Of a stretch of DNA of 64,000 bases, positions 2,274 through 64,000 are shown piece by piece. The translations under genes were made by a program, and so were the position numbers. Position 1 is the stretch's first letter, and the number at the start of each line of letters is the position of its first letter. The stretch spans positions 127,786,621 through 127,850,620 of the forward strand of contig NC_091125.1 in the NCBI RefSeq assembly GCF_040183065.1. The letters run 5' to 3'. The DNA is from Periplaneta americana (taxonomy: Eukaryota; Arthropoda; Insecta; Blattodea; Blattidae). The notes below the pieces were generated by a model. That model saw only the letters and a list, made by a program, of their open reading frames with translations, was not told the origin of the DNA and made no database searches.

Positions 2274-3041
2274 TCAGATATAAACTTTGAACTCACCCAT
2301 ATCGTAAAATATATAACCACCTTCCACCACATTGTGAGGCTCGGAAGGTTCATCCATCCACTCCTGATCTTCTGACGCGCTGTCATCACTGTTCAGCAGC
2401 TCAGTCAAAGCCTCCACTGCTTTGTTAACGTTCAACGCAAGTTCAGCACTGGTTATTTCGATAGAGTTATCCTCTCTACTGTTTCCAGCAATGCCTTCAT
2501 CGTTTACAAAGCCAATAATCAAAATACCTGGCATATCCGCGTAAGTTATATCGTCGACAATCACCGCTTCGATGTCACCCTCTGGATCAACAAACTCGTG
2601 TCCATCATCAAAAATATTCAGGTCGAGAATATCGGACTCTGAAACTGAATTATCATCAACATTGACATCTGTAAATTCCTCGACATCTGCACTGTTTCTG
2701 TTTACATTTGCATCTCTAGAAGACGTTGTCAAAGTAGTAACATCATTTGGCATTACATTTTGGTCACCGTCCAAATCGGATGTACAATTTTTATTGATTC
2801 CGAAATCGACAATAATTCCGTCAACTTTCATATCGCTTGAGTCGAAATTTAAACAATCATTTCCATCACAATTTGTAAATTCTAATCCATCTTCTTCAGT
2901 ACTATCCAAGTCGTCTAACAAATAATCATCGACAATCGGGTTGTTAAATCCGCCATAAATGATATACGCAAGGCAACCATTGTTCAATGTTGAGAATACC
3001 AACCCAACAGAAAGAAATAACAAACTTCTTAGCAATTTCAT
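2274..3041 (-). CDS. Acidic secreted protein, unknown function, likely continues in another exon
   Basis: The best start is the ATG at 3041 (MKLLRSLLFLSVGLVFSTL), which begins a typical signal peptide of about 25 residues ending near CLA; the open frame runs further upstream but adds no signal-like sequence. The mature chain is strongly acidic (many D, E, N, S) with few cysteines and a potential N-glycosylation site (NCT). No known domain is recognised. A near-perfect splice donor, ATGG|GTGAGT, lies at 2297/2296, 21 bases before the in-frame stop at 2274. The true C-terminus is therefore probably encoded in a downstream exon and the last six residues shown here may be intronic. It is the lowest-coordinate member of the same-strand secreted-protein series. 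Secretion is well supported; function is unknown. Confidence 0.7.
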   Translation of the reverse strand: MKLLRSLLFLSVGLVFSTLNNGCLAYIIYGGFNNPIVDDYLLDDLDSTEEDGLEFTNCDGNDCLNFDSSDMKVDGIIVDFGINKNCTSDLDGDQNVMPNDVTTLTTSSRDANVNRNSADVEEFTDVNVDDNSVSESDILDLNIFDDGHEFVDPEGDIEAVIVDDITYADMPGILIIGFVNDEGIAGNSREDNSIEITSAELALNVNKAVEALTELLNSDDSASEDQEWMDEPSEPHNVVEGGYIFYDMGEFKVYI

Positions 3042-3113
3042 TATTTGTAAGTTGGCAATATTCAGTACTATAATCAAATATCCACCACTAATTTCAAAAT
3101 AATAAACGATCAC

Positions 3114-4870
3114 TCAACACAGATAACGATACGATTGCACTTGTTAATAACAACAAATCATTTTTACACAAGAATGATAAGAAACTATTATCCTTCAGAT
3201 AAGTAAATTGTTCAAAATAGAAGTAATTAATATCACTATTAATATGTTAATGAAAACAATGAAAAAGCTTCACACAGACAATAACACGTCTCGGACTGTC
3301 AATGTAACGGATTTTCTCACATCTGTAGCATTCAGCTGGGTATGTTTCTTCATTTGTTTGAACTTTGACGTCGACATCTTTGGATGCCATGTTGAACTAC
3401 GGCGATAACGGATCTGTTGACAAGACATTTATATTTGTAGCTTGTCAACTATCACATGATTGAGCATTCTGAATAATTTACACAAGGGGTTGCTAATTAC
3501 CTACCTAATGCCATAATTATCAACTTCGCTTCCATCATAAATGTGTAATCAAAGTTACTGCTGAGATAATGACATGCTTTGTCACATGTTGGCAACTAAT
3601 TTATTTATATTCAATTACATAAGCCTACTGTTAAAAATTTAACAAATTAAACAACGAGTTATCTTAGGACTTCTTATAAAATGTAGAAGCTATTCAATCA
3701 TTTCGGTAACAACGGAGTAATAATGGAATAAAATTAGCAAGAGAAACAACGTGCAGAATAAAACAGGCTTCATTTCCTTTTCAAAGTATCTGTCTGGAAT
3801 TGAATCTTCGTTTCCCTTGTTAAAAATATGAAAGATACACTGATAAGTAGCGTCGATTGAAGTGTCAATGGATTTTTCTGGGAGTAAAATTTGTACTACC
3901 TGCTCACATCTCCACCAGTAAGTAGGAAATAAATACACTTTCTAGTAGTTACTTTGGCCCAAATAATCGTAATTACAAACAAGATTTTTCAAGATAAATC
4001 TTTTATTTATTCCGATTTCGGATTATTTTCTCATACAGGACCAAGTATGAAATCTTTTAATAATAAAGTGAACATGTCTGAAATTCCACACAAGTACAAT
4101 ATGAGACGTAATAAATCTTATGTGTATTTTTGCCTGAGTTACGCATAGTGAGAGAGACAATAGTTCAGACGGCGAAAATATTTCAAAATCTGTAGCGCGG
4201 TTCATAAGAAGCTATAATTTTAATTCCTTCTCGGCATAGATATGTAATATTTAAACAGAAAAGCAAAACGAATATCTTGTCAACATATAAACGAAAATTT
4301 CGGCTCGGAGCATGCGCAGTGTGGCATTCTTTGACTTCGAAAAAGCTCGAGTCGCTCAACTATTAGGCTATATCCCTTATTGTACATTTGCGTAACACAA
4401 CATTCACCGTCTCCATCCGTCAGTATAAGAATACTCGTGCTTAGACAGTAGACTAGGAATTTGAATAAATAGTTCATTAGAACACATAGTAATATAAATG
4501 TATTTATTAGATCACACAATACCATAATTACAAAACCAAAACTCTGAAAAACACCTCAATTCACATAAATTAATATATTAAGTTTTAACACCAAAAATAT
4601 GGAAACTCCAAATCGATTATTCTTAGATCGAAACAAGTGAATGGGCATAAGACTTGTAGATCAAAGTAATGATGACATTTTATTGGCTCATCAAATCTTG
4701 CATGCTTTCAATCATTTTCATTACGCGTGGTCTATTTTAATGGCCTCAGATAAATATTAATCTGAAGAAAGACCTCCGAAACAGTACTGGCTTGGCACCT
4801 AAAGAAATATAAAAACTATTAGTGAATTTGAAGGTTATAGTAACATAAATATTTAATAATATATTCTAAT
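3114..4870. other. Intergenic and 5' flank, no gene seen
   Basis: Only short frames occur. The minus-strand frame at 3690-3938 contains a hydrophobic stretch after an internal Met, but ends almost at once with no mature domain or splice donor. No convincing TATA box was found at a fitting distance from the start at 3041. Confidence 0.5.
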
Positions 4871-4879
4871 TTACTTGTT

Positions 4880-6690
4880 TCCAATCAATGTATTTTAAAT
4901 ATCCATAGAACACATTATAACCCCGCAATTTAATTTCGTTTGTCAAATTAATGTAGTTTGAATATTTCAGAATAAATTCTGTAATCCTGCACTTCGAATT
5001 TCTGTGTATAATTAAATTCATGTTGATTGTCTATAGAACAACACCTTGCAGTCCTGCACATTGTATATAAATAAATTCATTTTGAATACTTAGGCCTATA
5101 GAACGTCTTGCAGTCCTACACTTTGATATGCTGAATATAAATTGATTAATTTCGAATTTCTATAGAAAAACCTCTTGCAGTCTTACACTTTGATGTTCTA
5201 CATATAAATTAATTAATTTAGAATGTCTATAGAACAACGTCTTGCAGTTTTACACTTTATATGCTGAATATAAATTTATTAATTTCGAATTTCTACAGAA
5301 CAACCTCTTGCAGTCTTACACTTTGATGTTCCACATATAAATTAATTAATTAATTTTGAATTTCTATAGAACAACGTCTTACAGTTTTACACTTTGATAT
5401 ACTGAATATAAATTAATTAATTTTGAATTTCTATAGAACAACGTCTTACAGTTTTACACTTTGATATGCTGAATATAAATTGATTAATTTTGAATTTCTA
5501 CAGAACAACCTCTTGCAGTCTTACACTTTGATGCTCTACAAATAAATTAATTAATAATTTTGAATTTCTATAGAACAACGTCTTGCATTTTTACACTTTG
5601 ATATGCTGAATATAAAGTTATTAATTTTGAATTTCTACAGAACAACCTCTTGCAGTCTTACACTTTGATGTTCTACATATAAATTAATTAATAATTTTGA
5701 ATTTCTATAGAACAACGTCTTGCAGTTTTACACTTTGATATGCCGAATATAAATTAATTAATTTCGAATTTCTACAGAACAACCTCTTGCAGTCTTACAC
5801 TTTGATGTTCTACATATAAATTAATTAATAATTTTTAATTTCTATAGAACAACATCTTACAGTTCTACACTTTAATATGCTGAATATAAATTAATTAATT
5901 TTGAATTTCTACAGAACGTCTTACAGTCCTACACTTTGATATGCTGCATATGAATTAATTAATCTTTGAATTTCTATAGAACAACGTCTTCTAATACTAT
6001 AGTTTGATATACTGCATATAAATTAATTAATTTTTAATTTCTATAGAACAACGTGTTGCAGTCCTACACCTTGATGTTCTATGTATAAATCAATTAACTA
6101 ATTTTGAATTTCTATAGAACGTCTTGCAGTCTTGATATTCTATATACAGTATTAATTAATTAATTAATTTTGTATTTCTTTAGAACGTTTTGAACTCCTA
6201 CACCTTGATGTACTCCACACAAAAATTAATTAATTTTTAATTTCTGTAGACGAACGTCTTGCAGTCCTACACTGATATGCTGCATATAAATTAATTAATT
6301 TTGAATTTCTATAGAGCAATGTCATGTAGTCCTACATTTTGATGATGTTCTCTATATAAAAACATTAATTTTATTAAGAAATTCTTGCAGTCCCACACCT
6401 TGATGTTCTGCTTATTAATAAATTAATTTTGTACACTTACAGAACATCTTGCAGTCCTACACTTTGTTGTGCTTCATATAAATCAATTAATTTTAAATAT
6501 CTATTGAAGAACGTCTTGCAGACCTCCACTTGATTTTTTCTACATAAAGAAATTCAGCTTTCAATATCAATGGACTAATATGTTGCAGTTCTGTACATTG
6601 ACTTTTTCATGTGGAATCAAATTATTTTTGAATGTTTGTAGAATAACGTCTTGTAATCCTGCAGTTTAATATTTAATATCTAATGCTGCA
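4880..6690. repeat. Minisatellite of ~65-bp units with alternating dimer structure
   Basis: About 26 diverged units of 60-67 bp share a core of the form ctatagaacaacgtcttgca ... tacactttgata ... taaattaattaatttt. From about 5130 to 5900 two unit types alternate: one with cctcttgcagtcttacac and gatgttctacatat, the other with cgtcttgcagttttacac and gatatgctgaatat. This gives a higher-order period near 130 bp. Units toward both ends (4880-5100 and 6350-6690) are more degenerate, as expected for an array that turns over in its centre. It lies just 3' of the gene at 6958-7362 and may sit inside that gene's 3' intron. Confidence 0.9.
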
Positions 6691-6957: not shown

Positions 6958-7362
6958 TTATGAGTAGTCGTCCTCATCTTCATCATCGTAACTCCCATTA
7001 CCTTCGTCACCATTCTCACTCCCGTTGGGTTCTACCTCAATATCTGGAGTCGGAATGGCTTCTGTGGTGACACTTGGCATAGTTGGCATTATAGGATAAA
7101 CTGGTACTTGAGGATCACATGGTATGCAACCCCCAACATCGTAATCACACCCTTCAATGCACCCTGTATCATAATAATAGTCTTGGGGGGGATAGTTGCA
7201 ATAATTGAACCCCCAGCCACACAGAATATTGTATCCACTCCAATATCCGTAAGGGTCATAATAACCGTACCCAGGTATTACAAAACCATTAGAAGTCCAT
7301 GCACATTGACTTATTAAAGTGAATAAAGAAATAAAAATAACTGAATTTAAATTTGAACTCAT
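6958..7362 (-). CDS. Small Tyr/Cys-rich secreted protein with acidic tail
   Basis: The 134-residue frame starts at the ATG at 7362 with a signal peptide (MSSNLNSVIFISLFTLISQC, cleavage near residues 20-26). The mature part has a Gly/Tyr-rich stretch (about 27-65), six cysteines at 48, 55, 68, 72, 79 and 82, a Pro/Thr linker (about 84-106) and an acidic tail of Asp/Glu with two NGS glycosylation sites. No catalytic motif is seen. The Tyr/Pro opening and a PxYPI motif resemble the N-terminal part of the 12820-14142 product, so the two may be distant paralogues. Downstream, TGAGAG|GTAAGAAT at 6885/6884 is a good splice donor in the 3' untranslated region. Cuticle, egg-case or gland-secretion roles are possible guesses only. 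Confidence 0.75.
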   Translation of the reverse strand: MSSNLNSVIFISLFTLISQCAWTSNGFVIPGYGYYDPYGYWSGYNILCGWGFNYCNYPPQDYYYDTGCIEGCDYDVGGCIPCDPQVPVYPIMPTMPSVTTEAIPTPDIEVEPNGSENGDEGNGSYDDEDEDDYS

Positions 7363-12819: not shown

Positions 12820-14142
12820 CTATGCAGGCTCTATATAGTCATTATAATCAAGATAATGAAATGTTGTTTCTTGTGATTCTGTAGTAACAACTGTTGTAGG
12901 TAATTCCGAAATAGCACTTTCACTAGACACTGCTAAGATTTCAGTATTCTTATTTTCATTTAGTTCGGTAGTTAATGTTGTAGGCATTTCTGTAGATGAG
13001 TATGACTCTTCAATAAGTGATTCTGTTACTGTCGTTATCGATGAGGGAGTTAACTCTGCAGTTAAAGTTGGTTCTGTCGCCGATGATAACATATCTGTAG
13101 TTGTTAATGGTTTTTCCGTTGTTTCAATTGTTGTTGGAATAGTTGTTACTGGAAATGATAGAATAGTTTCCTTTGGTGTCGATGAAGTAATTTCTTCTGT
13201 TGTCAGTGGAATATTACTTTCTGTTATTGCTGGAAAAGTTTCTACCAACAACCTTGCTGAAGTAGATTCATCTATTGTTGGTGGAGTAGTTTCTTCTGTT
13301 ATAGGACCATCAGTTTCTTCTACAGCATCTACAGCAATTTCTTCTGCTGTTGTTAGAGTACTTTCTTCTGTTGTTGGTAGAGTAGTTTCTTCTGTTGTCG
13401 GTAGCTCAGTTTCTCCTATTGTACTTGGAGTAATTTCTTCTGTTGTTGGTAGAGTAGTTGCTTCTGTTGTTGGTAGAGTAGTTACTTCTGTTGTTGGTTG
13501 AGTAGTTCCCTCTGTCCTTGATGGAGTAGTTTCTTTTTTTGTCGGTAAAGTAGCTTCTTCTGTTGTCGATATAGTAGTTTCATCTGTTGTTGATAGAGCA
13601 GTTTCATCTGTTGTTGGTACAGTAATTTCCTCTGTTGTCCATGAGATAGTTTCTTCTGGTGGAATTACTTTTTCTGATGTCGTTAAAATGGCTTCTTCTC
13701 TCGTCGACGTAATAGTTTCTTCTGTTGTCGGTGTAATTTCTTCCGTTACCAGTGTATTAATTTCTTTTAATGTTGACAGAGTAGTTTCTTCTGTTGTTAA
13801 TCGATGAGTTGTCTGTGAAGTAACTTTCTCTTTTGATGATTCTGTTATTCTTGATGTCGTTGATTTTGATATTTCTGTGATTGCATTCGGAATATTCACC
13901 TCGTCCACAATAGGATAAATAGGAAAATCAACATAATCGTAACAATAACAAATATCAGGATCAGGATAAGTTTGTGGAGGTGATTGATATGGGGGAGGTG
14001 GTGGCACGTATGGGTCAGGGTATTGTAGATATCCTCCCCACTGATAGTGATAACCCTGCGGTATAATACTTAAACCATAAACAAAATCAAAAGTTAAATA
14101 GATGACTAAACTGCACACAACTTTTAAGTAGCTAGATAGCAT
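12820..14142 (-). CDS. Mucin-like Thr/Glu-rich secreted protein
   Basis: The chosen start is the ATG at 14142, giving 440 residues; the frame is open further upstream but begins there without an ATG. Residues 1-23 (MLSSYLKVVCSLVIYLTFDF) form a signal peptide. A Tyr/Pro-rich N-terminal domain (about 24-82, including a run of Pro and the CYCYDY motif) is followed by a long Thr/Ser/Glu/Pro tract (about 90-425) built from degenerate 9-11 residue units of the type TTEETTLPTT, expected to be densely O-glycosylated. The C-terminus is short and acidic. No chitin-binding Cys domain is seen, unlike peritrophic mucins. It lies in the same-strand secreted cluster. Likely an extracellular or luminal mucin; tissue and role are unknown. 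Confidence 0.8.
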   Translation of the reverse strand: MLSSYLKVVCSLVIYLTFDFVYGLSIIPQGYHYQWGGYLQYPDPYVPPPPPYQSPPQTYPDPDICYCYDYVDFPIYPIVDEVNIPNAITEISKSTTSRITESSKEKVTSQTTHRLTTEETTLSTLKEINTLVTEEITPTTEETITSTREEAILTTSEKVIPPEETISWTTEEITVPTTDETALSTTDETTISTTEEATLPTKKETTPSRTEGTTQPTTEVTTLPTTEATTLPTTEEITPSTIGETELPTTEETTLPTTEESTLTTAEEIAVDAVEETDGPITEETTPPTIDESTSARLLVETFPAITESNIPLTTEEITSSTPKETILSFPVTTIPTTIETTEKPLTTTDMLSSATEPTLTAELTPSSITTVTESLIEESYSSTEMPTTLTTELNENKNTEILAVSSESAISELPTTVVTTESQETTFHYLDYNDYIEPA

Positions 14143-18075: not shown

Positions 18076-18224
18076 GTAAAACCTGCAGCTTTCTTGTGCA
18101 TTATTTCGTTTTGCTTACCTATTAAATACGTTGTCACAAAAAACTCGTGTGTTACTTTTCGATCCGACTATGTATTTAAAGTATCGAGGGCCGAGCGCTT
18201 TCGGATTTAATTTTCAATCTAAAT

Positions 18225-18763
18225 CAACAGCCTGTTATTTTTACATAATGATAATAGTGATTGTCAATATACTCACTGTTACCAGGGTGAAATACTTTCT
18301 TGCACTCTCCAGGTCTGTAGAGACGTTCCCCTGGTGGACACGTTCGAAGTGGAGCATCTATCATTCCAGATGCTAGCCTATTTACTGTCTCTCCCGGAGG
18401 TCCTGGCGGAGGCATTGGTGGTCTCCCATAATAATCGCTGGGCCCACGAGGTGGCTGAAGACCTGGTCCGATGGGGGGGATCTGTGGATATTGACCCGGA
18501 GCCGGAGGACTCAGTCGTGCTCGTCGTATGTAATAATCTTCACTAATAGGTCCTGGCGGAGGTCGAAGCTCAGGTCCACTAGGAGGTATCTGCGGGTATG
18601 GTCTGGGGTCCGGACGTGTAAGTCTTGGCCGGGTGAGAAACATGTCCGAAGAGAGAAATTCTGCGTCATTTAAATTATTTGAAACGTGCGTTTTGGAATT
18701 ACGAAAGTTGTCTTCCGATGAGCATGTTACAAGAAGAGTCAATAAAATGGCCAAGTAATTCAT
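18225..18763 (-). CDS. Pro-rich secreted protein with CxxGx6GxC module, spliced C-terminus likely
   Basis: Start ATG at 18763; residues 1-14 or so (MNYLAILLTLLVTC) form a short signal peptide. Residues about 44-113 hold two tandem ~33-residue repeats sharing YPQIPPxGPxLxPPxGP and DYY, plus a partial third Pro-rich unit (114-123). Residues 142-154 form a C-x2-G-x6-G-x-C module (CPPGERLYRPGEC), identical in spacing to both modules in the genes at 43819 and 49663. A consensus donor, AACA|GTGAGTAT at 18277/18276, follows residue 162, so the last ~17 residues before the in-frame stop are probably intronic and an unseen exon may supply the end, perhaps a second module. No enzymatic motif. Function unknown; secretion is well supported. 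Confidence 0.75.
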
Positions 18764-22707: not shown

Positions 22708-22764
<57 letters not shown>

Positions 22765-22791
22765 AGTTATTTATAATCTCTAAACATTTTC

Positions 22792-23519
22792 TTAAAGGGT
22801 TAGGTACAGCTTACAGCAGTAAAATTTTTGGAAATATTCAACATTTTTTTCCTCCATTACTGGATCTTGTACATACAATAATGAAAATTGGTATGTGTAA
22901 AACACTGTCCTTCTGCTATATTAAAAAAATGTTTTTACGATTTAAAAAAATTATTTATATATATTTTTTCAAAATTCAAATTGTTGGCAGTTCACTGTGC
23001 AGTGATGAAGCGTTTCCCTCATAACTCATATACTTGTTAACTTTTTCATATTGTCTCTCTTTTATTTTATTGCTGAAACTCATGTTTACAATATCGTGCT
23101 TTTCAACTACATTCCTTAATAAACATATTTTTTTTTATTTTGCATTAGAAGAAAATACTAATATTTGACCTTTTTTAAAATGAATTTATTTTTTTATCGG
23201 ACAATCTATCGTAGATAGAGAAGTGATCTTGCATCATATTGTAGATATGACCTGCATAAATATGTACAAAAATGTCATCACAGAATTTTGGATAGTTTTT
23301 TAGTTATGTGGGAAACGCTTCATCACTGCACAGTGAACTGAAATTTTGAAAAAAAAAATGTAAATAATTTGTTCTAACTCGTAAAAATACTTTTTTCATA
23401 TAGCAGGACAGTGTTTTACACATACTAATTTTCATTATTGTACAAGATACAGTAATGGGGAAAAAACATGTTGAATATTTCAAAAATTTTACTGCTGTAA
23501 GCTCTATCTGACCCCTTAA
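22792..23519. mobile_element. Foldback element with TTAA ends (left arm copy)
   Basis: Ends TTAAAGGGTTAGGTACAGC and GCTCTATCTGACCCCTTAA are inverted, with arms of ~230 bp that include acagcagtaaaatttttg and gcagttcactgtgcagtgat. Its partner occupies the other arm of the long inverted repeat at 25001-25786. Confidence 0.7.
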
Positions 23520-23788
23520 GGAAATCCTTAGAATAAAATGTTACTCAAAAATGTAGTATCATTAAAACACACTTATAAAACAAACAACAATACAGAGAAT
23601 TAACTGCAGGCTGCAAGAAGGAAGAATGTTTATAGTTAGACAGACATTAAACACGCAAAAATGAAGTTTCGAAGATCTGGAGATATTGTACTCGTAAATA
23701 AAAATAGGCTACAGCGCCTGAGAATTCAGATGAATGAAGGACTGACATTTGCAAATAGAATTCTTTCAGCAACAACAGCAACAACAAC

Positions 23789-23830
<42 letters not shown>

Positions 23831-23949
23831 GATTACAGGAAGAAGTTTCAGTGATCATAAGTATCTCATATGCTGTAGGGATAATACTAATTCTCATAAA
23901 ACACGTGTCAAAATTACCCTTATAGAACATGTTATGAAAATATTCCATA

Positions 23950-24045
<96 letters not shown>

Positions 24046-24147
24046 ATACTACTACTATTATTTTTCTTCTATGTTCTCCTTCATTTACCGCTTTCTCTAG
24101 CGGGTCGTCTATGCCAAACTACTTAGGCCTATATTTTTAACAAGACT

Positions 24148-24268
24148 ATGGAATATTTTCGTAACATGTTCTATAAGGGTAATTTTGACACGTGTTTTTA
24201 TGAGAATTAGTATTATCCCTATAGCATTTCAGATAGTTATGAGCACTGAAACTTCTTTCTGTACTCTT

Positions 24269-24338
<70 letters not shown>

Positions 24339-24458
24339 TGGAATATTTTCGTAACATGTTCTATAAGGGTAATTTTGACACGTGTTTTTATGAGAATTAG
24401 TATTATCCCTATAGCATTTCAGATAGTTATGAGCACTGAAACTTCTTTCTGTACTCTT

Positions 24459-24519
<61 letters not shown>

Positions 24520-24525
24520 TGGAAT
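24148..24525. repeat. Tandem ~185-bp units each ending in a TAA array
   Basis: Units beginning tatggaatattttcgtaaca and ending tttctgtactctttataa plus (TAA)n start near 24148 and 24336, with a third partial, more diverged start near 24519. The first two are almost identical outside the (TAA)n tail, which implies recent unequal exchange or slippage. Confidence 0.85.
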
Positions 24526-24636
24526 ATTTTCGTAACATGTTCTATAAGGGTAATTTTGACACGTGTTTTATGAGAATTAGTATTATCCTTACAGCATTTG
24601 AGATACTTATGATCACCGAAACTTCTTCCTGTAATC

Positions 24637-24672
<36 letters not shown>

Positions 24673-24683
24673 TTATTATTATT

Positions 24684-24731
<48 letters not shown>

Positions 24732-25000
24732 GTTGTTGTTGTTGTTGCTGCTGAAAGAATTCTATTTGCAAATGTCAGTCCTTCATTCATCTGAATTCTC
24801 AGGCGCTGTAGCCTATTTTTATTTACTAGTACAATATCTCCAGATCTTCGAAACTTCAATTTTGCGTGTTTAATGTCTGTCTAACTATAAACATTCTTCC
24901 TTCTTGCAGCCTGCAGTTAATTCTCTGTATTGTTGTTTGTTTTATAAATGTGTTTTAATAATAGTACATATTTGAGTAACATTTTGTTCTAAGGATTTCC

Positions 25001-25576: not shown

Positions 25577-25626
<50 letters not shown>

Positions 25627-29136: not shown

Positions 29137-29299
29137 TGTCATATTTCTTTCAAGTATTTAGTAGGCATGAAAATTTGATAGGCCTATACACAACATCTAA
29201 AATAACTACGTACTTCATAGCTAACATTCATCATTTAATTCATATCGACCTCATTATAATATGTTATAAAACTGAAAGAAAGCGAGTCTTACCTTCCTG

Positions 29300-29722
29300 T
29301 CATGTTTCGTCTTTCTTCGATTTACTTCCTCCAGTCCTCTTCAGGCATTTTCTTCTGGCCGTTGGAGATTTTTTCTTTCTGCAGCACTTCTTCATTGCTT
29401 TGCACGCAGAGGAATTCTGGACCAAGTTCAAATCTGCGCATCTTTGTACGACCTGCGCAACACATTTAAATTGTTTCTTCTTGTTTTTTAAAGTATTTTC
29501 ATTCTTACCGGCTGTTTCTGGTGTAGGAGTGGTCAGGTTCGAATCGTCTGTTGTACGTTTCACCATAAAAGGTTTAATGCACTCTCGGTTCTTGTACCAT
29601 CTACCATCACAAGGAACACCACGAGTTGGCCCGTCAATAATCCATGGCAAAGTAAGGACACCAGGTAATTCAAAAACACATGTTAACATCTGAAGAATGA
29701 CTAATGTCATTACAAGTTTCAT
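29300..29722 (-). CDS. Cationic Cys-rich secreted protein
   Basis: Start ATG at 29722 (MKLVMTLVILQMLTCVFELP), the first true ATG of the frame; 140 residues. Signal peptide about 1-24. A short Cys pair (C38, C48, with GRWYKNREC) precedes a Thr/Pro linker carrying an NLT glycosylation site (62). The Lys/Arg-rich C-terminal half has cysteines at 87, 95, 107, 113, 114 and 126 and an NSS site at 103. The last ~25 residues are strongly basic. A consensus donor GAAG|GTAAGA lies at 29293/29292, seven bases past the stop, implying a 3' UTR intron as in its cluster neighbours. The basic Cys-rich end would suit an antimicrobial, growth-factor-like or matrix-binding role, but no family is recognised. Confidence 0.75.
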   Translation of the reverse strand: MKLVMTLVILQMLTCVFELPGVLTLPWIIDGPTRGVPCDGRWYKNRECIKPFMVKRTTDDSNLTTPTPETAGKNENTLKNKKKQFKCVAQVVQRCADLNLVQNSSACKAMKKCCRKKKSPTARRKCLKRTGGSKSKKDET

Positions 29723-42235: not shown

Positions 42236-43094
42236 CGTTTAAGAGCTATTGCTGTATTTTTTATTAGACCTTTGCCATGTTATTATAAATTCTCCAGGTG
42301 TCTATATCACTTTGTCTATGTGGCAGCCCTCTTATGAGGGAAGTTTGTTAAATGAATAAGTAAAACAAAATGTACTATTAAAAAGAGAAGTAAAGAACCG
42401 TTTTCAGCCACATATAAATTAACAATTAACTGATATTCTGTATTTAAACACATGAGATTATCCCATAAACATTATCATTCTGATTTATCCATCCGTATAT
42501 GAGTAATGCCAAGCTTGTATTAACTTTCTACAGTTACGCATGCATTGCGCACGCGCCTGTTTCCGTCCATATCAAAGCACAATTGAACAACATTATTTTT
42601 AATACATTGCAACTCCCCCCATGAATTTATAATAAGCCTTTCAAGTGTAAATACAAGAACTCCCCTTGTGTACAGGAATAGACTCGTAAACATAGCATTT
42701 TAACGGATATGACGCAAACATTTCCGTGGCAACCGAAGTCTAATTTCCGTTCCATAAAATACTTTCATTTTTTCTTTTACTGTAGGTCGAATATTAACAA
42801 CAAAAAGTAAGCTAATTTACATTGCATGCAAATACACAAGTTCTCAAAATTAGCGTTTTATTATCTTCCAAGAGGACATCAAAAACAGTGGGGACCCAGA
42901 ACAGATGTAATGATCAAGGGAATGTATCTTGAGACGCACAGAGATAGACCCCGCCCAACAAAAGGTTCAGACTATTTAAGTCAACTGATAGTATCGGGCA
43001 ACATCGTACACGGCGTTACTGGATAGATGTACTTCCCAAGTAATGGGAATTGCTAGTGAATAAATATCCTTTCAACTATTTACTGTGTAATCAA

Positions 43095-43515
43095 ATTAAT
43101 ACCTGTATATCAATTTATGTAAAGAAAAGACTGTCGTTAGAAACAGAGGATAGGTTTGGATACCTATTGGACTGTGCCAAATATGGGACCAGCCACAGGA
43201 GAGATGCAATTAGTCAATTGTTTATTCGAAATCATATTGTTCCTAATGATTTTGTCCGCAACCTTGAGACAGTACTTAATTGCGAGGAAACAAAGATCAA
43301 CGGCCTGTTCCTCCTTGGACCTTCCAATTCCGGAAAGAGTTTTATAGCTCAGGACATTGCCCACCACTTTATAACAGGTTATGTGACATGTGCGAATAGC
43401 CTGTCTGAGTTCACATACGAAAATTTCTTACATAAATCTTTGATTTTGTTGGAAGAACCGTTCCTTAACAGACGGCATCTGCGATGATATGAAAAATATT
43501 TCGGCAGGCGCTCAA
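43095..43515 (+). pseudogene. Endogenous parvovirus-like (NS1-type) SF3 helicase fragment, broken
   Basis: The plus-strand frame ending at 43487 contains GLFLLGPSNSGKS (about 43294-43332), a Walker A motif of the superfamily-3 helicase type found in parvovirus NS1, followed about 40 residues later by an acidic Walker B-like LILLEEP (about 43440-43460). Spacing and context match the helicase core of densovirus-type NS1; bidnavirus or another small DNA virus Rep is possible. Near 43465-43470 the similarity passes into another frame, and by about 43517 it is cut off by a (GAT)n array. No rolling-circle HUH domain or capsid gene is visible. The open frame has no ATG at its start, so this is a degraded insertion and not a functional gene. 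Confidence 0.65.
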
Positions 43516-43596: not shown

Positions 43597-43818
43597 TATA
43601 TTACCAATAACGGCTAATTTGGAGAATAATATGATTTTGTTCAACATAAAACGCTTAATTCAGCTGATAAAAATACTTTCATAGTAGTTTATAATATGGA
43701 TTTTCCATTGATCTGAACACAAATAAATATAAGTATTTATCCCATTTAATGCTTAATAGAAATATAAAAATTAATAAAACTGTAATGGACTATCAAACAT
43801 CTTTCTCTCTCTCACCTG

Positions 43819-44547
43819 TCATCTCTTATACCAGTGACCAGAATCTGTAGGCACGCACTTCCCTTCTTTGTCGAGGATTAATCCAGGCAAACAGTCACTT
43901 TTTGAGGGAGCACACACACCCCTAGAGTTAAGATACCACCCAAATAAACACTGAGGCTGTCCATCTTCAGACCATGGCTTTTCTGCGGAATCCACAACAT
44001 AATCTAACACTACTTTTTGGTCATAAAAATCGTCAGACACTTCGCTGATATCGTCAAAATCATCGAAGTCTAAATTGTAACCTTCCTCCTTGTCAGTACC
44101 CCTATTCTCGAGATCACCTATACTAACACCATCAGTGTCTTGAACTTCAGCAAGATCTACCTCACGTTTGTGTATATTATCGCCATGAACTTCATAAGAA
44201 ATACTGTTACGTTTATGATCTACATTGTCTTCTCCTCTTTCATTTTGATTGTAAACAGCAGCTGTAAGAATTCTATTTAAGACACTAGAGATTCCAGTTT
44301 GTGATAATTTATCGTCTTCTTCAGATTCTTCACTCGTTACATCTGCAGTATACTCGTCAAGCTTATTATTTTCCTCTTCAAGAAGATCTGTATTGGTATT
44401 CAGAATTTTCCACAAATGCAATTTGAGAAATTTCAAAACGTCTTTCTCTTCCACATCACTGTTTCTTGCAGACAACGGAATGCCACTAACTGCCATCAGT
44501 ACGTACGTAGAGACTAAAAGAATTGTACAAGTCCTAGAGCAAACCAT
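43819..44547 (-). CDS. Acidic secreted protein with two CxxGx6GxC modules and SGHWYKR end
   Basis: Start ATG at 44547, 242 residues; the frame upstream begins at a non-ATG codon. Signal peptide about 1-22 (MVCSRTCTILLVSTYVLMAV). Residues 30-190 are acidic with possible dibasic cleavage sites (KR at 112 and 127). The tail has cysteines at 200, 212, 219 and 231, forming two modules C-x2-G-x6-G-x-C joined by six residues, and ends SGHWYKR. Cysteine spacing and tail are shared with the 49663 gene, so they are paralogues. A consensus donor CAG|GTGAG at 43816/43815 lies three bases after the stop. Upstream, a TATA box at 44654-44661 and an initiator at about 44630 are correctly spaced. Function unknown. 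Confidence 0.85.
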   Translation of the reverse strand: MVCSRTCTILLVSTYVLMAVSGIPLSARNSDVEEKDVLKFLKLHLWKILNTNTDLLEEENNKLDEYTADVTSEESEEDDKLSQTGISSVLNRILTAAVYNQNERGEDNVDHKRNSISYEVHGDNIHKREVDLAEVQDTDGVSIGDLENRGTDKEEGYNLDFDDFDDISEVSDDFYDQKVVLDYVVDSAEKPWSEDGQPQCLFGWYLNSRGVCAPSKSDCLPGLILDKEGKCVPTDSGHWYKR

Positions 44548-44627: not shown

Positions 44628-44661
44628 ACTGAACACACAGGTTGTCGCATATCCTTATATA
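44628..44661 (-). promoter_or_regulatory. Core promoter (TATA box plus TCAGT initiator)
   Basis: On the minus strand TATATAAG (44661-44654) is followed about 30 bases later by TTCAGTTG (initiator TCAGT at 44632-44628), the usual arthropod spacing. It predicts a start about 85 bases upstream of the ATG at 44547. Confidence 0.65.
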
Positions 44662-45148
44662 CTCTATTTGACAGGAAAAGTAAACATTAGGAAAGACCTT
44701 TTTTAATATTCAGGGATTTACAACGTTTATTTCCCGTATGTAACTATGACATAATAGTCCTACAGAATTCGTAGAACGTACGCAAAGCATCCTTGCCCAC
44801 TCCCACACTTTTTAATTGTTCAGAACGGAATTTCATCAGTTAATTTCCGGAATTTTCCTCATTTATAAGTAAGAGGATAAGTAGTTTCTTCATTATTTCC
44901 TCCAAGGAAAAAAATAACCCATTTCCGTTTCTCGATGTTATGTGTAGACATGTTTATGTCTGTGTTTATTCCTTGAAGAAAGCATTCCTTATAAAAGGGT
45001 TTGAAAATAGTAAATAATAAGAGTGATAAGTAACTTATAAAACAGGTTTACAATTGGGGACCTAACATTCTAAATATGCTAAATGCCAAAAACAACTTTC
45101 TGAGACATTATACGATGAAAGAGTAATGGAACGGAGAAAAATTCTCTC

Positions 45149-45500
45149 CGGCGCCGGGATTTGAACCCGGGTTTTCAGCTCTACGTGCTGATGCTTTATC
45201 CACTAAGCCACACCGGATACAACCCCGGCGTCGGACAGAATTGTCTCTGATTGAGTTCCAACTCTTGGGTTCCCTCTAGTGGCCGTCCTCTGCACTACGT
45301 CATAGATGTCTATGAACATAGGACCGAAGTCCACACATGTGCTGAGGTGCACTCGTTATGAGTGACTAGTTGACCGGGATCCGACGGAATAAGCGCCGTC
45401 TTAAATGTCTTTCTGAGACATTGATGAAAAACACACTGCGAAATGCATGTTGAGATACCTACAACACCGTCTTTTGGCGCACGAATGAGTCACTCACAGC
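45149..45500 (-). mobile_element. tRNA-derived SINE, family D
   Basis: On the minus strand, tccggtgtggcttagtggat ... gggttcaaatcccggcgccgga folds as a full tRNA cloverleaf (7-bp acceptor, 5-bp TCAGC/GCTGA anticodon stem). However, position 33 is C and the putative GTA anticodon lacks the intron usual in tRNA-Tyr. Being embedded in a longer non-tRNA body, it is best read as a SINE head. The distal boundary is uncertain. Confidence 0.65.
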
Positions 45501-49469: not shown

Positions 49470-49662
49470 CATGATAATGATGAAGGGGCTAATGGCGTTA
49501 ATGGTGGTAAAAGTCTTCAGAAATAATTTAGAATTCAGTTTTTCTTTAGCTTTTCCTTATTCAAAATATTACTTATATTTAAGTGTATATTAAGAAAATC
49601 TTCAAGCCATTTGGCTTAAATTCATATGTTAACAATACTTCAAAATGCATTCCTCTCACCTC

Positions 49663-50808
49663 TTATTTTTTGTACCAGTGTCCGCTATCCGGTCGAATAC
49701 AGTCTCCAGCATCGTTGAGAACTTCACCCTCGGCGCATTCAGTTTTCGGTGGTGCACACACTCCGTTTTCATTTAGACTCCATCCCCTCTGGCATGCGGA
49801 ATTTTCTGAATTTTTACTTGAACTGGAAACTGCATCCTGAGGAACTATGAAGTCCATCACAGCCATGCCATCTTCGCCTTTTTGCAAGTCTGACTCCAAA
49901 TAATCGTTGTCACCAACTTCAACATTATTATCAACATTTGCAACGCTGTCACTCTTCGATGTAACGGCAACAACGTTATCTTCATCATCGTCGTCGTCGT
50001 CATCATCATCATCGTCGTCGTAGTCATCGTCATCGTAGTAATAATCGTCATCGTCATCATCATCATCATCATCATCGTCGTCATCATCATCGTCATCGTC
50101 TTTATCAATATCGCTCCGAACAGTTTGGTCTATGTTGTTTTTAATTCCATTGTTGTTATTTATCGACTGTGATCCAACTTCCCCATTATCATCGACGTAA
50201 TCCAGGTCGGCGGTTTTCTCCTTGACATCAGAATCAACTTTTTGGCCGTCAGTAGGTTGATCTTTATCTATCTGGTTGTTGTCAATTTCTGTTTCCATTT
50301 TGTTTAGATCAGATAACTCCAATTCAAATTCAAATTTTCTGACTACTCGTGTTAAATTTTCTTCACCGTTCTCATCCTTAGCTGCTACTTTGGTATCAAC
50401 ATGTTCCAAATTTTTATTAGAATTAGAATATTTCTCCTCTTCTACTTTATGTAGGAAATGCTTATCGTCGTTTGTTTTTAGTTCCTTGTCTTTTCCTTCG
50501 TCGACATTTTCCTTAGTTTCTTCACTTTCGAAGTCTTCAAATGAATCGCTGATCCTGTCCTTGTCTGAACCAATACTATCATCTTTCTCTTCTACATTCA
50601 ATTTATCTATAACTTTATTTGTTTCCTGAAGAGTATTTGTTTCTTCGCTTATTTCCGTAATTTCTGGATACGTAAAATTGAACGGATTTATTCTTTTCGA
50701 CTTATAATCTGTATCCCTATCGATTATCACAAATCCGCTGCACTCGAGCGCCGTTATCATTAAAGAGATGGAAATCGCCAGTAGCGTACAGGACTGTAGG
50801 CTCACCAT
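49663..50808 (-). CDS. Asp-rich secreted protein with two CxxGx6GxC modules and SGHWYKK end
   Basis: Start ATG at 50808, 381 residues; the open frame upstream of it begins at TTG. Signal peptide about 1-24 (MVSLQSCTLLAISISLMITA). The central ~300 residues are highly acidic, with long Asp tracts broken by Tyr (encoded at about 49990-50100), and would be disordered and able to bind calcium or cations. The tail has cysteines at 339, 351, 358 and 370, the same C-x11-C-x6-C-x11-C spacing as the 43819 product, and ends SGHWYKK. The Asp tract uses mixed GAT/GAC codons and may owe its length to slippage. Donor GAG|GTGAG at 49660/49659 lies three bases after the stop. A TATA box is at 50924-50931. Function unknown; biomineral, egg-case or gland roles are only guesses. 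Confidence 0.85.
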   Translation of the reverse strand: MVSLQSCTLLAISISLMITALECSGFVIIDRDTDYKSKRINPFNFTYPEITEISEETNTLQETNKVIDKLNVEEKDDSIGSDKDRISDSFEDFESEETKENVDEGKDKELKTNDDKHFLHKVEEEKYSNSNKNLEHVDTKVAAKDENGEENLTRVVRKFEFELELSDLNKMETEIDNNQIDKDQPTDGQKVDSDVKEKTADLDYVDDNGEVGSQSINNNNGIKNNIDQTVRSDIDKDDDDDDDDDDDDDDDDDDDYYYDDDDYDDDDDDDDDDDDEDNVVAVTSKSDSVANVDNNVEVGDNDYLESDLQKGEDGMAVMDFIVPQDAVSSSSKNSENSACQRGWSLNENGVCAPPKTECAEGEVLNDAGDCIRPDSGHWYKK

Positions 50809-51318: not shown

Positions 51319-52663
51319 TTTATTTATTATTAATATTTGTGTGCTGAACAACAGCCAGAGGCCAATTATAGTTCAGCACAATACACAAACAGAAGCTACA
51401 AAGGTGCAAAAACAAATAAATAATATCTTAAGTAAACAAAAACAAACATAAATAAAATAGATAACAAGAACAGTAAATACTAATAATCAAAACGAAACTG
51501 TACCTTAAAAGGATCTAAATTGTGCCCATGCAAATTGGCATATTTTATGCATCTACAGACTGGAGAAAGTGATTTAGAATTTCTGTTATAAAAAATGTTT
51601 TGAATTTATTATAGACTCACAATCAATATCACCATTAATAACTTTGCAAAGAAATTGATAATCAAGATTTTGACGTCTAGAATAAAGGCTACAACAGTTA
51701 AAATATTTACAGGTAATCTCATAGTTAAAGTCAGAGGAATTGGGTATAAATCGAAAAGCACATAAGGAAATAAATTTTCTTTGAATATTTTCCAATTTAA
51801 CCGAATCTGTTGAAGTAATGGAATTCCAGGCTACAGATGCATATTCAAGTTTAGATCGAACCAAAGTAAAGTATAGAATTAATAGTGACTCAGGAGTAGA
51901 AAAAAATAAGTTATAGACCTTATTAAACCAAGCATTCTTATTGAATGATTATAAATATATTGAACATGATCATGAAAGTATAATTTAGAATCGAGTAATA
52001 CACCAAGATCTTTAATAGAATTTTTCCTAATAACACAGACGTTGTTAAGAGAATAGTTAAATTTTATGGAAGTAGTTTTTCGTGAGTACGATATGACAAA
52101 AGTTTTTGTTTCATTAATTTTCATTCCATTATTGTCAGACCAAAGTTCAATAGAGTTAATATCATTTTGAAGAGTTTGGCAATCGGCAGGACTATTTATT
52201 GAGCGAAAGATTTTGAGATCATCAGCAAATAACAGGTAGTTTGAACTTATTCTTTTAGATATGTCATCTATAAATAATAAAAATAATAGAGGGCCCAATG
52301 TAGATCCTTGGGGAACTCCACATAAACAATTAAATGGGTCCGAGAGAGAATCACCTAGACGAACACAACATTGTCTATTAGTTAAATAGTTTTCAAACCA
52401 GCTCACGTAGTTAGAAGAGAGACCAAAGTTTTCTAATTTATTTATCAAAATATTGTGAGGTACAACATCAAACGCTTTGTTAAAGTCGATGTAGATTGAG
52501 TCAATTTGACCTTGCGTTTGAACAACCGGCATAACAAGATTAAGGTATGATACTAAGTTGGTAGTTGTTGATTTACCTTTAGTAAAACCATGTTGGGCTG
52601 AATTAATTTTATTCTTAACATAAAATGAACCATGTTTGTGGATTATTTTTTCAAAAATGTTTG

Positions 52664-52740
<77 letters not shown>

Positions 52741-52860
52741 TAATAATAATAATCTAATACTAAATACAGCCTTATAATCTAATATTAAATAAAGCCTCAT
52801 AAACTAATATTAAATAATCATAATCTAATATTAAATAAAGCCTAGAATAATTTACATCAA
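51185..52860. repeat. Small tandem repeat split by a LINE insertion
   Basis: Units of about 22-35 bp (taatctaatattaaataaag, cctcataaac) occur on both sides of the LINE fragment, at 51190-51255 and 52745-52850, so the LINE appears to have inserted into this array. Confidence 0.65.
51340..52665 (-). mobile_element. LINE reverse transcriptase fragment (jockey/CR1-like), frameshifted
   Basis: Minus strand, from about 52662: FEKIIHKHG and QHGFTKGKSTTTNL, then DFNKAFDVVPH, GVPQGSTLGPLLFLLFIDD and the catalytic YLLFADDLKI, followed by KTFVISYSR, KDLGVLLD and, in a second frame from about 51880, LEYASVAWNS and IQRKFISL. The order matches the RT palm and thumb of jockey/CR1-type non-LTR elements; the GVPQGS and F-ADD motifs are intact. 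A one-base change in a T-run near 51890-51900 shifts the frame. The endonuclease domain is missing (5' truncation). A (TAA)n array sits at the 5' side (52665-52755) and an ATT/TTTA array at the 3' side (51250-51330). Confidence 0.85.
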
Positions 52861-57260: not shown

Positions 57261-57391
57261 TTACTAACTAGAGTTTTTAGATTACAAGTTACATAAAAGC
57301 GCAGCATTCCCAATTTCAGTACTGTTTATTTTGGAGCGACCTGTACTATAATAACAGCAATGAAATTTTATTTAATCAGTAATTATGCTGA

Positions 57392-57393
57392 TG

Positions 57394-57450
<57 letters not shown>
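57392..57450. repeat. (AAT)n microsatellite
   Basis: About 19 units abutting the 5' truncation point of the LINE fragment. Confidence 0.9.
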
Positions 57451-58149
57451 TGTCTCGTGATCAGAATATTGTACGAAATGGAACTATAAAAGTTGGATAT
57501 TTATCCTTCGAAGAGGTGGAGAAATTCAAATATCTTGGAGCAATAGTAACAAATATAAATGACACTCGGGAGGAAATTAAACACAGAATAAATATGGGAA
57601 ATGCGTGTTATTATTCGGTTGAGAAGCTTTTGTCATCTAGTCTGCTGTCAAAAAATCTGAAAGCTAGAATTTATAAAACAGTTATATTACCGGCTGTTCT
57701 GTATGGCTGTGAAACTTGGACTCTCACTTTGAGAGAAGAACAGATATTGAGGGTTTTTGAGAATAAGGTTCTTAGGAAAATATTTGGGGCTAAGAGGGAT
57801 GAAGTTACAGGAGAATGGAGAAAGTTACACAACGCAGAGCTGCACGCATTGTATTCTTCACCTGACACAATTAGGAACATTAAATCCAGACGTTTGAGAT
57901 GGGCAGGGCATGTAGCACGTATGGGCGAATCCAGAAATGCACATAGAGTGTTAGTTGGGAGGCCAGAGGAGAAAAGACCTTTGGGGAGGCCGAGACGTAG
58001 ATGGGAAGATAATATAAAAATGGATTTGATGGAAGTGGGATATGATGGTAGAGACTGGATTAATCTTGCTCAGGATAGGGACCAATAGCGGGCTTATGTG
58101 AGGGCGGCAAAGAACCTCCGGGTTCCTTAAAAGCCAGTAAGTAAGTAAG

Positions 58150-59382: not shown

Positions 59383-59384
<2 letters not shown>

Positions 59385-62054: not shown

Positions 62055-62720
62055 TAAGTCTCCGAGCACATTTACAAAAACTTATTCTTACACCGTTGGT
62101 CTGGAGAGAAAAAACTGCGAACATTCACACACACAAGCATATAAGAACTAACTAATAATTCGCCACCCTCGCCAAGCAGACAAAAATTTACAGTAGAATT
62201 TGGCTTCCTTAACTGAGAAAAGAAAGTCGTGTTTTTTACAACAGCTCGAAGGCCAGCTCACGCAAGGGTGAGATCTGGTCATCTACTCTTGCCGATATTC
62301 TAATTTTCACAAGTACTGTATAATCGCGTCAAGAAAAGCGGTAGTATTGCATGTTATTTATTTCAAAATATAGATTATCACCAACCGCGGATCCCCTGAT
62401 AAGTGTTGGCGCCGTGGGGCACAGTTTGGGAACCACTGGTATAAATAATATTTGATTCTACTTCTACTTAACCTGAAGTCAAAATAAGTGAAATAACTTC
62501 AGTACGACAAATCATAAATATTTACTAATATTTAATAGTAGGCCTAAAATATGAATACAGACTGACAATCTTTATGAACCATATATATGCATTACACGTT
62601 CTAGGAAAAAGTCAAGTCCACTCCTATCACCTTACTCCAAGGTTCATTTATTACTGTTTTTATGTCCGCGTGTTTAAATAAGTTCAACACAAACACAAAA
62701 TTTCAACGGATCTGATCTCA

Positions 62721-64000
62721 CTATTTCTTTTTCTGTTTTCCCCACACTGGTCTACAGAATTTACGTATTCGTCTACTACCCCTATCACATCTTCCAGCCC
62801 ATGGCGCCCTCACCAAGTGACGTCGCCATCTTGTCTGTTCTTCGCAATCGCATTTGAATTCACAACCCATATAAAAATGACGACCGATTGCATTAAATTT
62901 TTCCCATAGATCATTCTCGACACACGCAAATTCTAGATCAATACTTTCTTCCTTTGAAACTTGAACAGGATCTTCAAATGAAGTGCTAGAGACCGTGAAC
63001 CATTCTTGCTCAAATATCCTCTTGATCAAATCTTGTTCTTGTTCACCAAACCAGCCATCGGCAACATTGTGGTCATCGTAAGTTACTTCCCAGTCATCGT
63101 CACTGCTTTCTGAACTATTTTCTTCTGGTGATAGATCAACGTTTGCACCACCTAACCACTGGCGTAAGATATCTTTAGTGTTCTGGATGAATCCTCCATC
63201 AGCTAGGATTCTAGATGGTGATGCATCTTCATTCGGTGTTGCTTCACTACGAGAAACCAGGTTACGTGTCAGGGACGGCTTTGATGGTGTGAAAAACTTA
63301 TCAGCGGTGCTTCCCAAGTTTTTGTTGAAGTTACTGGATACACTTTCTTGATCATCAGTAAATACGTCTCTCAAAACATACCGATCAGTGGAATCGTAAG
63401 GATCAGAATCCGGAAACTCAGGTCGTTTCTCTGAGACATCTTTGGATATTGTTGTTCTTGTTGCTGCTGTTGTTCTTGTTGGAAGAACCATATCTCCAAA
63501 CACTTCTGTATTAAAACGCAAAGTATTCACCGAGAATGAAGTCTCATTACTTCTTCTTAAATTATATTTTGGTGTTGTAGAAGTCTTCACTTCTTCTTCC
63601 GCAAGAATCCCACCCACTAATTTGTCAATATCTAACACAAAGTTATTTACAAGTCTATTCAACGCGTTTGAATACGTTTTACTTCCTTCGGTGTGATTGT
63701 TGAAATCTGGGGAACTTTCGGAGTCCTCCTCTGAAAACATTTGGTTCACTAATTCATCAGTATCTAATCCAAATTTACTCAAGAACGTCCTACGAGATGG
63801 TTTAGAATTATCGTAATTTTGTTGTGAGTTCACACCACTAAACACGTTCACTCTATTTTCACCATGCGTAGAATGTTGAAGATTCTGGAGCTTGTTTAAG
63901 AAATTTCCATTTTCGTTATTGGCATCCCACCGAACGCCATCCGAAGAAACTCTAATATCAGAAATATGGGAACTTTGATCTTGTACACTTATCTCTTTGC
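62721..64000 (-). CDS. Partial gene: acidic protein with basic six-Cys C-terminal domain
   Basis: The frame is open from the stop at 62721 through the window edge, at least 425 residues, so the 5' end and any signal peptide lie beyond 64000. The N-terminal and central parts are Ser/Asp/Glu/Asn-rich with two related segments (RTFLSKFGLDTDELVNQMFS and RLVNNFVLDIDKLVGGILAE) that look like an internal duplication. The last 67 residues change character: six cysteines (CVEND, MGCEFKCDC, GRCDRG, KFCRPV) and many Arg, Lys and Trp (TRWRRHLVRAPWAGRC). An acidic region before a cationic Cys domain recalls precursor proteins whose acidic part masks a basic one, but no family is recognised. A GTGAGAT donor-like sequence overlaps the stop codon. 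Same strand as the other secreted genes; I place it in the cluster with moderate confidence. Confidence 0.75.
   Translation of the reverse strand, partial: KEISVQDQSSHISDIRVSSDGVRWDANNENGNFLNKLQNLQHSTHGENRVNVFSGVNSQQNYDNSKPSRRTFLSKFGLDTDELVNQMFSEEDSESSPDFNNHTEGSKTYSNALNRLVNNFVLDIDKLVGGILAEEEVKTSTTPKYNLRRSNETSFSVNTLRFNTEVFGDMVLPTRTTAATRTTISKDVSEKRPEFPDSDPYDSTDRYVLRDVFTDDQESVSSNFNKNLGSTADKFFTPSKPSLTRNLVSRSEATPNEDASPSRILADGGFIQNTKDILRQWLGGANVDLSPEENSSESSDDDWEVTYDDHNVADGWFGEQEQDLIKRIFEQEWFTVSSTSFEDPVQVSKEESIDLEFACVENDLWEKFNAIGRHFYMGCEFKCDCEEQTRWRRHLVRAPWAGRCDRGSRRIRKFCRPVWGKQKKK

What the first reader, a model, noticed from the sequence alone, without database searches (positions are those of the whole stretch)
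2274..64000. Eight same-strand genes for secreted low-complexity proteins form one cluster
Every credible host gene in the 64 kb is on the minus strand, and each of the seven with a visible N-terminus starts with a signal peptide, followed by a compositionally extreme mature chain in one large exon (acidic, Asp-tract, Thr mucin, Tyr/Cys, Pro repeat or basic Cys-rich). By chance eight of eight on one strand has probability near 1/128. Two are clear paralogues and a third shares their Cys module. This looks like a tandemly expanded, fast-diverging secreted-protein family (for example gland, salivary, seminal, egg-case or immune products), possibly undescribed.
Basis: partly seen in the sequence, partly recalled or inferred. 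Interest (0 to 1): 0.75.

Follow-up and report, generated by a model that had tools for sequence, protein, structure and literature searches.

The report
Tandem array of insect cytokine-like genes
The window lies inside a long one-strand row of secreted-protein genes in a very large insect genome (probably a cockroach), many of which end in a small cysteine loop matching the published signature of an insect stress and immune cytokine (growth-blocking peptide), which suggests an unusually large, fast-changing cytokine cluster.

Summary
Eight minus-strand ORFs (134-473 aa) begin with a signal-peptide-like segment; 30 shuffles gave none of 130 aa or more. The own genome (3.23 Gb) shows a larger cluster: in 324 kb read, 26 such genes lie on one strand over 221 kb. 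Their link is not low complexity but a basic C-terminal two-cysteine module. A profile from 10 flanking modules finds 9 held-out ones, all minus-strand, including window gene P4. The published growth-blocking-peptide (GBP) motif occurs 14 times, all minus-strand, in ORFs with a signal-like start; shuffles average 0.35. P4 has the strict motif. P6 and P7 are paralogues with two copies lacking its final K/R. P8, and marginally P5, resemble the module; P1-P3 do not. Nine of 26 genes have a strong 5' splice site within 7 nt of the stop. Best reading: a tandem array of GBP-like cytokine precursors with hypervariable spacers, plus diverged relatives. Against: Pfam GBP_PSP and Secapin matches stay below cut-off. 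Expression, processing and receptor are untested; the species is recalled.

The parts
2274..3041 (-). P1: signal peptide plus acidic chain, 255 aa; no module found
6958..7362 (-). P2: signal peptide plus Tyr/Cys chain with acidic tail, 134 aa; one relaxed motif CIEGCDYDVGGCI that shuffling can give
   Evidence: 426 of 20000 shuffles; no similarity to the modules
12820..14142 (-). P3: signal peptide, Tyr/Pro segment, 24-nt-repeat Thr/Glu mucin-like chain, 440 aa; no module found
18224..18763 (-). P4: signal peptide, Pro-rich spacer, C-terminal module
18287..18361 (-). P4 module; strict published GBP motif CPPGERLYRPGECK at 18299-18340; candidate 5' splice site 13 nt after CKKVF (score 6.8, weak)
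   Evidence: held-out profile hit E 3.1e-7; motif; splice site
29300..29722 (-). P5: signal peptide, module-like segment, basic Cys-rich tail, 140 aa
29567..29641 (-). P5 module-like segment IIDGPTRGVPCDGRWYKNRECIKPF; marginal similarity
   Evidence: 14 of 1000 shuffles reach it; profiles do not detect it
29287..29295 (-). 5' splice site 7 nt after the P5 stop (AAG|GTAAGA), by a recalled matrix
43819..44547 (-). P6: signal peptide, acidic spacer, doubled Cys module, 242 aa
43855..43950 (-). P6 two relaxed GBP motifs, final K/R absent in both
   Evidence: 0 of 20000 shuffles
43810..43818 (-). 5' splice site 3 nt after the P6 stop (CAG|GTGAGA)
44628..44661 (-). P6 TATATAA and TCAGT initiator-like match, 29 nt apart, upstream of the ATG (consensus match only, not tested against chance)
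49663..50808 (-). P7: paralogue of P6 with Asp-tract spacer, 381 aa
49699..49794 (-). P7 two relaxed GBP motifs, final K/R absent in both
   Evidence: 0 of 20000 shuffles
49654..49662 (-). 5' splice site 3 nt after the P7 stop (GAG|GTGAGA)
62721..64000 (-). P8: acidic chain with basic Cys-rich C terminus; starts at 64142, outside the window
62739..62813 (-). P8 C-terminal module-like end (RCDRGSRRIRKFCRPVWG); lacks the second Gly of the motif
   Evidence: group similarity 0 of 1000 shuffles; profile alone not significant

Best explanation
The window is the right-hand part of a tandem array of secreted peptide-precursor genes of the growth-blocking-peptide (GBP) kind. Shown here: the array genes carry a signal-peptide-like start, a spacer of very variable length and composition, and a basic C-terminal module of the general form [aliphatic]-x-[AV]-P ... 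C-x2-G-x-R ... G-x-C-[RK]-x-V-[FW], readable in one frame, in nine genes with a strong 5' splice site directly after the stop. Inferred: the precursor is secreted, a protease cuts before the module, and the released one-disulfide peptide of about 19-25 residues signals to blood cells, fat body or epithelia as GBPs do in flies and moths. P4 is an array member. P6 and P7 are derived members with a doubled motif. P8 and probably P5 are diverged relatives; P1-P3 are derived or unrelated secreted genes inside the array. The variable spacers would set solubility and which protease releases each peptide (inferred, weakest step).
For: Published GBP motif C-x(2)-G-x(4,6)-G-x(1,2)-C-[KR] (PMC6439351 section 4): 14 hits in six frames of 324 kb, 14 of 14 on minus and below a signal-like segment in the same frame; 20 shuffles mean 0.35, max 2, none with a signal segment. 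Profile from 10 flank modules finds 9 held-out modules, E 1.2e-8 to 5.3e-3, all minus, none on plus at E 1 or below. All 19 modules have net positive charge, +1 to +6. P4, P8, P6 and P7 resemble the set of modules beyond 1000 shuffles each. Strong 5' splice site within 7 nt of the stop in 9 of 26 genes, against 0.24% of 41083 stops within 10 nt. In the whole genome, array gene g-101 finds 6 places, 4 in this array including itself; of the three others there one is significant (E 3.6e-5) and two are weak (E 1.9 and 5.5).
Against: Pfam GBP_PSP matches one of 18 members scanned (the 19th, g-70, was left out), 19.1 bits against a cut-off of 25; in the genome search no match passes the cut-off, the best lies elsewhere (C11) and an array gene is second. 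Five of 19 modules miss the strict motif. Only one of the eight window genes has it. P1-P3 show nothing. Relaxed motif hits include two in frames that are not likely genes (17841, 149592). No transcript, peptide or receptor evidence. The splice matrix is recalled and its window was chosen after seeing P5-P7. The signal-peptide rule is crude.
Confidence: 0.6

Rival explanations
1. The array encodes secapin-like peptides: one-disulfide C-terminal peptides that inhibit serine proteases or kill microbes, rather than signal.
For: Pfam Secapin matches 2 of 18 members (best E 0.0046, 17.3 bits). Secapins are 25-residue one-disulfide protease-inhibitor-like peptides, one shown to be antimicrobial (PMC10059942 passage), with variable N and conserved C termini (PMC10591384 passage).
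Against: Below the Pfam cut-off of 25.9. PMC10591384 places secapin origin in stem Apocrita (passage). The GBP motif is met by 14 of 19 modules. Secapins may themselves be a GBP-like branch, so the two readings may overlap; not tested. The own-genome Secapin search did not complete.
Confidence: 0.2
2. A cluster of structural gland or egg-case secretions in which the Cys module only anchors or cross-links the low-complexity chains.
For: Extreme chains: Asp tracts, Thr/Glu repeats, Tyr/Pro. Brownie, a small novel secreted chorion gene of Blattella without known relatives, shows such orphan genes exist (PMC2792769 passages).
Against: 15 of 18 flank members are short (51-86 aa); the module, not the chain, is conserved.
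Confidence: 0.12
3. P1-P3 (and perhaps P5) are unrelated secreted genes that happen to sit in the array on the same strand.
For: No module similarity for P1, P2, P3; between genes no flanking homology beyond what look like repeats.
Against: Same strand, same layout of signal-like start and long single frame, and array genes on both sides.
Confidence: 0.45

Closest known systems
Growth-blocking peptide / paralytic peptide / plasmatocyte-spreading peptide cytokines (Pfam PF02425; Drosophila GBP1, GBP2)
   Same: Secreted precursor with one small two-cysteine peptide (its C-terminal place in known precursors is recalled); published motif met by 14 of 19 array modules
   Different: Many genes in one array, very variable and partly low-complexity spacers, doubled motif in P6/P7, Pfam score below cut-off
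Secapin (Pfam PF17521), Hymenoptera
   Same: One-disulfide peptide, variable N-terminal part and conserved C-terminal part; weak Pfam match of 2 of 18 members
   Different: Below Pfam cut-off; two genes in most hymenopteran genomes of that survey, not a long array
EGF C-terminal loop
   Same: The review notes that the GBP motif resembles part of EGF; three of 18 array members touch Pfam cEGF, best E 0.15
   Different: Two cysteines per module; no full EGF domain found

Membership tests
GBP family (array modules) | Consensus C-x(2)-G-x(4,6)-G-x(1,2)-C-[KR] | tested here: met
   14 of 19 modules; of the 5 that miss it, four miss one feature and g-88 two (sequences)
GBP family (window genes) | Same consensus | tested here: not met
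   Met by P4 only, 1 of 8; P6, P7 and P2 lack the K/R; P1, P3, P5, P8 have no relaxed motif
GBP family | Match to Pfam GBP_PSP above its gathering cut-off | tested here: not met
   Best 19.1 bits against 25, 18 of 19 members scanned; none over the cut-off in the genome
GBP family | Secreted precursor with the peptide at or near the C terminus | tested here: met
   Signal-like start upstream and stop 16-38 residues from the first motif Cys in the 14 motif ORFs; signal peptides by a simple rule only
GBP family | Proteolytic release of a 19-25 residue peptide | not testable with these tools
   Needs peptidomics
GBP family | Fat-body source; activation of Mthl10 or EGFR | not testable with these tools
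   Needs expression and receptor assays
Secapin | Match to Pfam Secapin above its gathering cut-off | tested here: not met
   17.3 bits against 25.9
P6/P7 as one paralogous pair | Significant sequence similarity and shared exon end | tested here: met
   E 4e-17; splice site +3 in both

The most novel reading that the evidence does not exclude
An insect, probably a cockroach, has turned the GBP cytokine into a long one-strand array of at least 19 module genes plus diverged relatives, in which the hypervariable spacers act as protease baits, so that different wounds, microbes or parasites release different ligands; P6 and P7 are a new two-loop ligand form.
Probability: 0.25. Interest if true: 0.8.

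Novelty: new variant of a known kind. Interest (0 to 1): 0.62.

Why it matters
GBPs link wounding, infection, feeding and growth in insects. The review seen here says it is unclear how far their signalling is conserved, and the parts read name moths, flies, beetles, locusts, aphids, an ant and a bee among holders. A large array in a cockroach-type genome would make ligand diversification directly testable, and it offers a function for a set of genes that look like orphan low-complexity secretions.

Tried and rejected
Protein database: A1 (P6+P7) and P8 gave no hit at E 1 or below among 6924 and 2434 candidates; the LINE reverse-transcriptase control gave 1068, with 3 of the 120 listed named as insects, so insects are held, but the search is weak for low-complexity chains. 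Viral and prokaryote contigs: no confirmed hit. PDB by sequence: A1 only chance-level matches (4, best E 0.39), P5 none at E 1. Folds from single sequences: P8 end pLDDT 36, useless; P5 pLDDT 61 with three helices, no PDB match at E 0.001 or below, best 4.1. Flanking homology between genes: upstream 1 of 21 pairs and downstream 2 of 28 pairs below p 0.05, about what chance gives. A conserved motif after the signal peptide, suspected by eye, was not significant in 21 pairs of the 80 residues after residue 18. Papers on Blattella choriogenesis (passages) gave no match in kind.

Rows dropped: of 26 signal-like ORFs of 75 aa or more (264 kb), 12 were not counted as genes (8 minus, 4 plus), because they lack the module and look antisense, repetitive or transposon-derived to the eye, or have no other support. 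So '26 of 26 on one strand' (a different 26: the 19 module genes plus P1-P3 and P5-P8) is a count of module genes and the window's eight, not of every ORF.

Not done: own-genome searches with P6, P5, g-27 and PF17521 did not complete; the best GBP_PSP place (C11) was not read. Slip: my notebook says 384 kb where 324 kb was read (160 + 64 + 100, of which 5 kb N).
Full report
OBSERVATION. The eight ORFs are real and all on the minus strand. A simple signal-peptide rule finds seven window ORFs of 130 aa or more with a signal-like start, all minus; 30 dinucleotide shuffles give none. The eighth, P8, starts 142 bases outside the window and has a weak signal-like start. The other long ORFs look mostly like simple-sequence or antisense frames and mobile-element or virus-like pieces. 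Of ten scanned, a reverse transcriptase at 51882-52661 and a parvovirus NS1-like piece at 43044-43484 match Pfam; eight match nothing at E 0.01. None of the eight proteins matches Pfam above a cut-off.

PARALOGY INSIDE THE WINDOW. P6 and P7 align at E 4e-17 over the C-terminal 69 residues and weakly over the rest. In the 43-residue tail 23 residues are identical (24 of 44 codons counting the stop, of which 8 are identical codons); 30 of 44 third codon positions differ against 15 and 14 at the others; dN is 0.45 and dS could not be computed, as at saturation. I read this as an old duplication under constraint. P4 shares the pattern weakly in pairs.

A SHARED EXON END. P5, P6 and P7 have a strong 5' splice site 7, 3 and 3 nt after the stop; the background for stops in the window is 0.33% at the same score within 10 nt. 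The splice matrix is recalled and the distance was set after seeing these cases.

THE NEIGHBOURHOOD. The own genome has 3.23 Gb in 91 contigs, and the window is C9:127786621-127850620. Size and contig pattern fit the American cockroach; that identification is recalled, not tested. I read 160 kb on the left and 100 kb on the right, 324 kb with the window, of which 5000 bases next to the window's left edge are N. A scan for signal-like ORFs on both strands and a tblastn with the window proteins showed further minus-strand genes with C-terminal modules like that of P4. A profile built from 10 such flank modules was run over all six frames. It found those 10 and 9 held-out ones: P4 and eight flank genes, E 1.2e-8 to 5.3e-3. 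All 19 are on the minus strand and no plus-strand frame reaches E 1. With P1-P3 and P5-P8 this makes 26 genes over 221 kb, median spacing 7.6 kb. Twelve other signal-like ORFs, 8 minus and 4 plus, were not counted (see Tried and rejected). The last module on the right is at 73.1-73.6 kb, and none follows to 164 kb; the left end was not reached.

WHAT THE MODULE IS. Aligned, the modules read roughly [aliphatic]-x-[AV]-P, then C-x2-G-x-R, then G-x-C-[RK]-x-V-[FW], at or near the C terminus; the two cysteines are invariant in the 18 aligned (g-70 was left out because it spans two pieces). All 19 modules carry net charge +1 to +6. The published consensus of the growth-blocking-peptide cytokine family is C-x(2)-G-x(4,6)-G-x(1,2)-C-[KR] (PMC6439351, section 4 read). 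It occurs 14 times in the 324 kb, 14 of 14 on minus and in ORFs with an upstream signal-like segment; 20 shuffles average 0.35 hits, at most 2, none with a signal segment. Five of the 19 modules miss the strict motif, four by one feature and g-88 by two (sequences). Pfam gives sub-threshold matches: GBP_PSP for 1 of 18 members scanned (19.1 bits, cut-off 25) and Secapin for 2 of 18 (17.3 bits, cut-off 25.9); other families also touch single members at similar or weaker E-values. In the whole genome GBP_PSP finds four places, none above cut-off; the best is on C11 and the second is array gene g-73. Protein g-101 finds six places in the whole genome, four in the array counting itself, of which only g-122 is significant besides itself; the 73-kb gene finds only itself. 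These genome searches score few candidates (8, 10 and 86).

WHICH WINDOW GENES BELONG. P4 meets the strict motif. P6 and P7 each carry two relaxed copies without the final K/R, which 20000 shuffles never give; P2 has one, which 426 of 20000 shuffles give. The relaxed motif has 22 hits in the region, all minus, two of them in frames that are not likely genes. In a summed alignment against all modules, P4, P8, P6 and P7 exceed all 1000 shuffles, P5 is reached by 14, and P1, P2 and P3 show nothing (eight tests, uncorrected). By profile alone only P4 is clear; P6 is weak and P8, P5 and P7 are not significant. The splice-site mark joins P5, P6 and P7 to six flank module genes: 9 of 26 genes against 0.24% of 41083 stops. 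In g-122, g-85, g-57 and P4 a candidate 5' splice site of lower score (6.8-9.1) lies 4-24 nt after the module inside the ORF, so their last residues may be intron.

HOW IT LIKELY WORKS. Shown: signal-like start, variable spacer, conserved basic two-cysteine C-terminal module, one strand, shared exon end in nine genes. From the papers: GBPs are 19-25 residues, made mainly in fat body, acting in immunity, growth and stress (PMC6439351 abstract and passages); in Drosophila GBP1 and GBP2 come from fat body and raise insulin-like peptide release (PMC4771208, abstract and passages); receptor work names Mthl10 and EGFR (PMC9067537, passages). Inferred: release by proteases and use as cytokines. A paper titled as showing proteolytic activation of GBPs in wound detection was seen only in a reference list (not held).

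IN PRINT. Literature searches for cockroach secreted clusters, secapin and GBP showed no title on a cockroach GBP array in the rows listed; these are capped listings, and most subscription papers are missing. The American cockroach genome paper (PMC5861062) and a Blattella fat-body paper (PMC11050582) have no occurrence of 'growth-blocking', 'GBP' or 'cytokine' in the main text searched.

VERDICT. A real, larger-than-reported tandem array, best read as GBP-like cytokine precursors with hypervariable spacers and diverged relatives. The array-level resemblance is strong; formal Pfam membership is not met; function is untested.

Noticed in passing
43044-43487 (+): Parvovirus NS1-like helicase fragment (Pfam Parvo_NS1 E 1.5e-4) just downstream of P6, probably an endogenous viral remnant; described only.
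   Followed up: no
51879-52778 (-) and 57297-58088 (+): Reverse-transcriptase LINE piece with 1068 database relatives; the second place looks like a reverse-transcriptase tail by eye but had no Pfam hit.
   Followed up: partly
5102-6531: Minisatellite of about 67 nt, 21 copies, between P1 and P2.
   Followed up: no
22761-25817: Nested inverted repeats with AAT microsatellites, possibly a degenerate foldback element.
   Followed up: no
45146-45217 (-): tRNA-Tyr call by Rfam and ARAGORN; could be a gene or a SINE head.
   Followed up: no
window coordinates -4999 to 0: Exactly 5000 N adjoin the window's left edge; a gap or withheld stretch that could hide a gene.
   Followed up: no
window coordinates 101244-101480 (+), in the right flank: Plus-strand ORF with a strong signal-like start and a Ser/His-rich chain, beyond the last module on the right.
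   Followed up: no
G000:C11:116082095-116082133 (-): Best GBP_PSP match of the whole genome (19.9 bits, below cut-off), a possible unlinked relative.
   Followed up: no
29333-29503 (-): The P5 tail is predicted as three helices with cysteines (pLDDT about 80 over most of it), no PDB match.
   Followed up: partly
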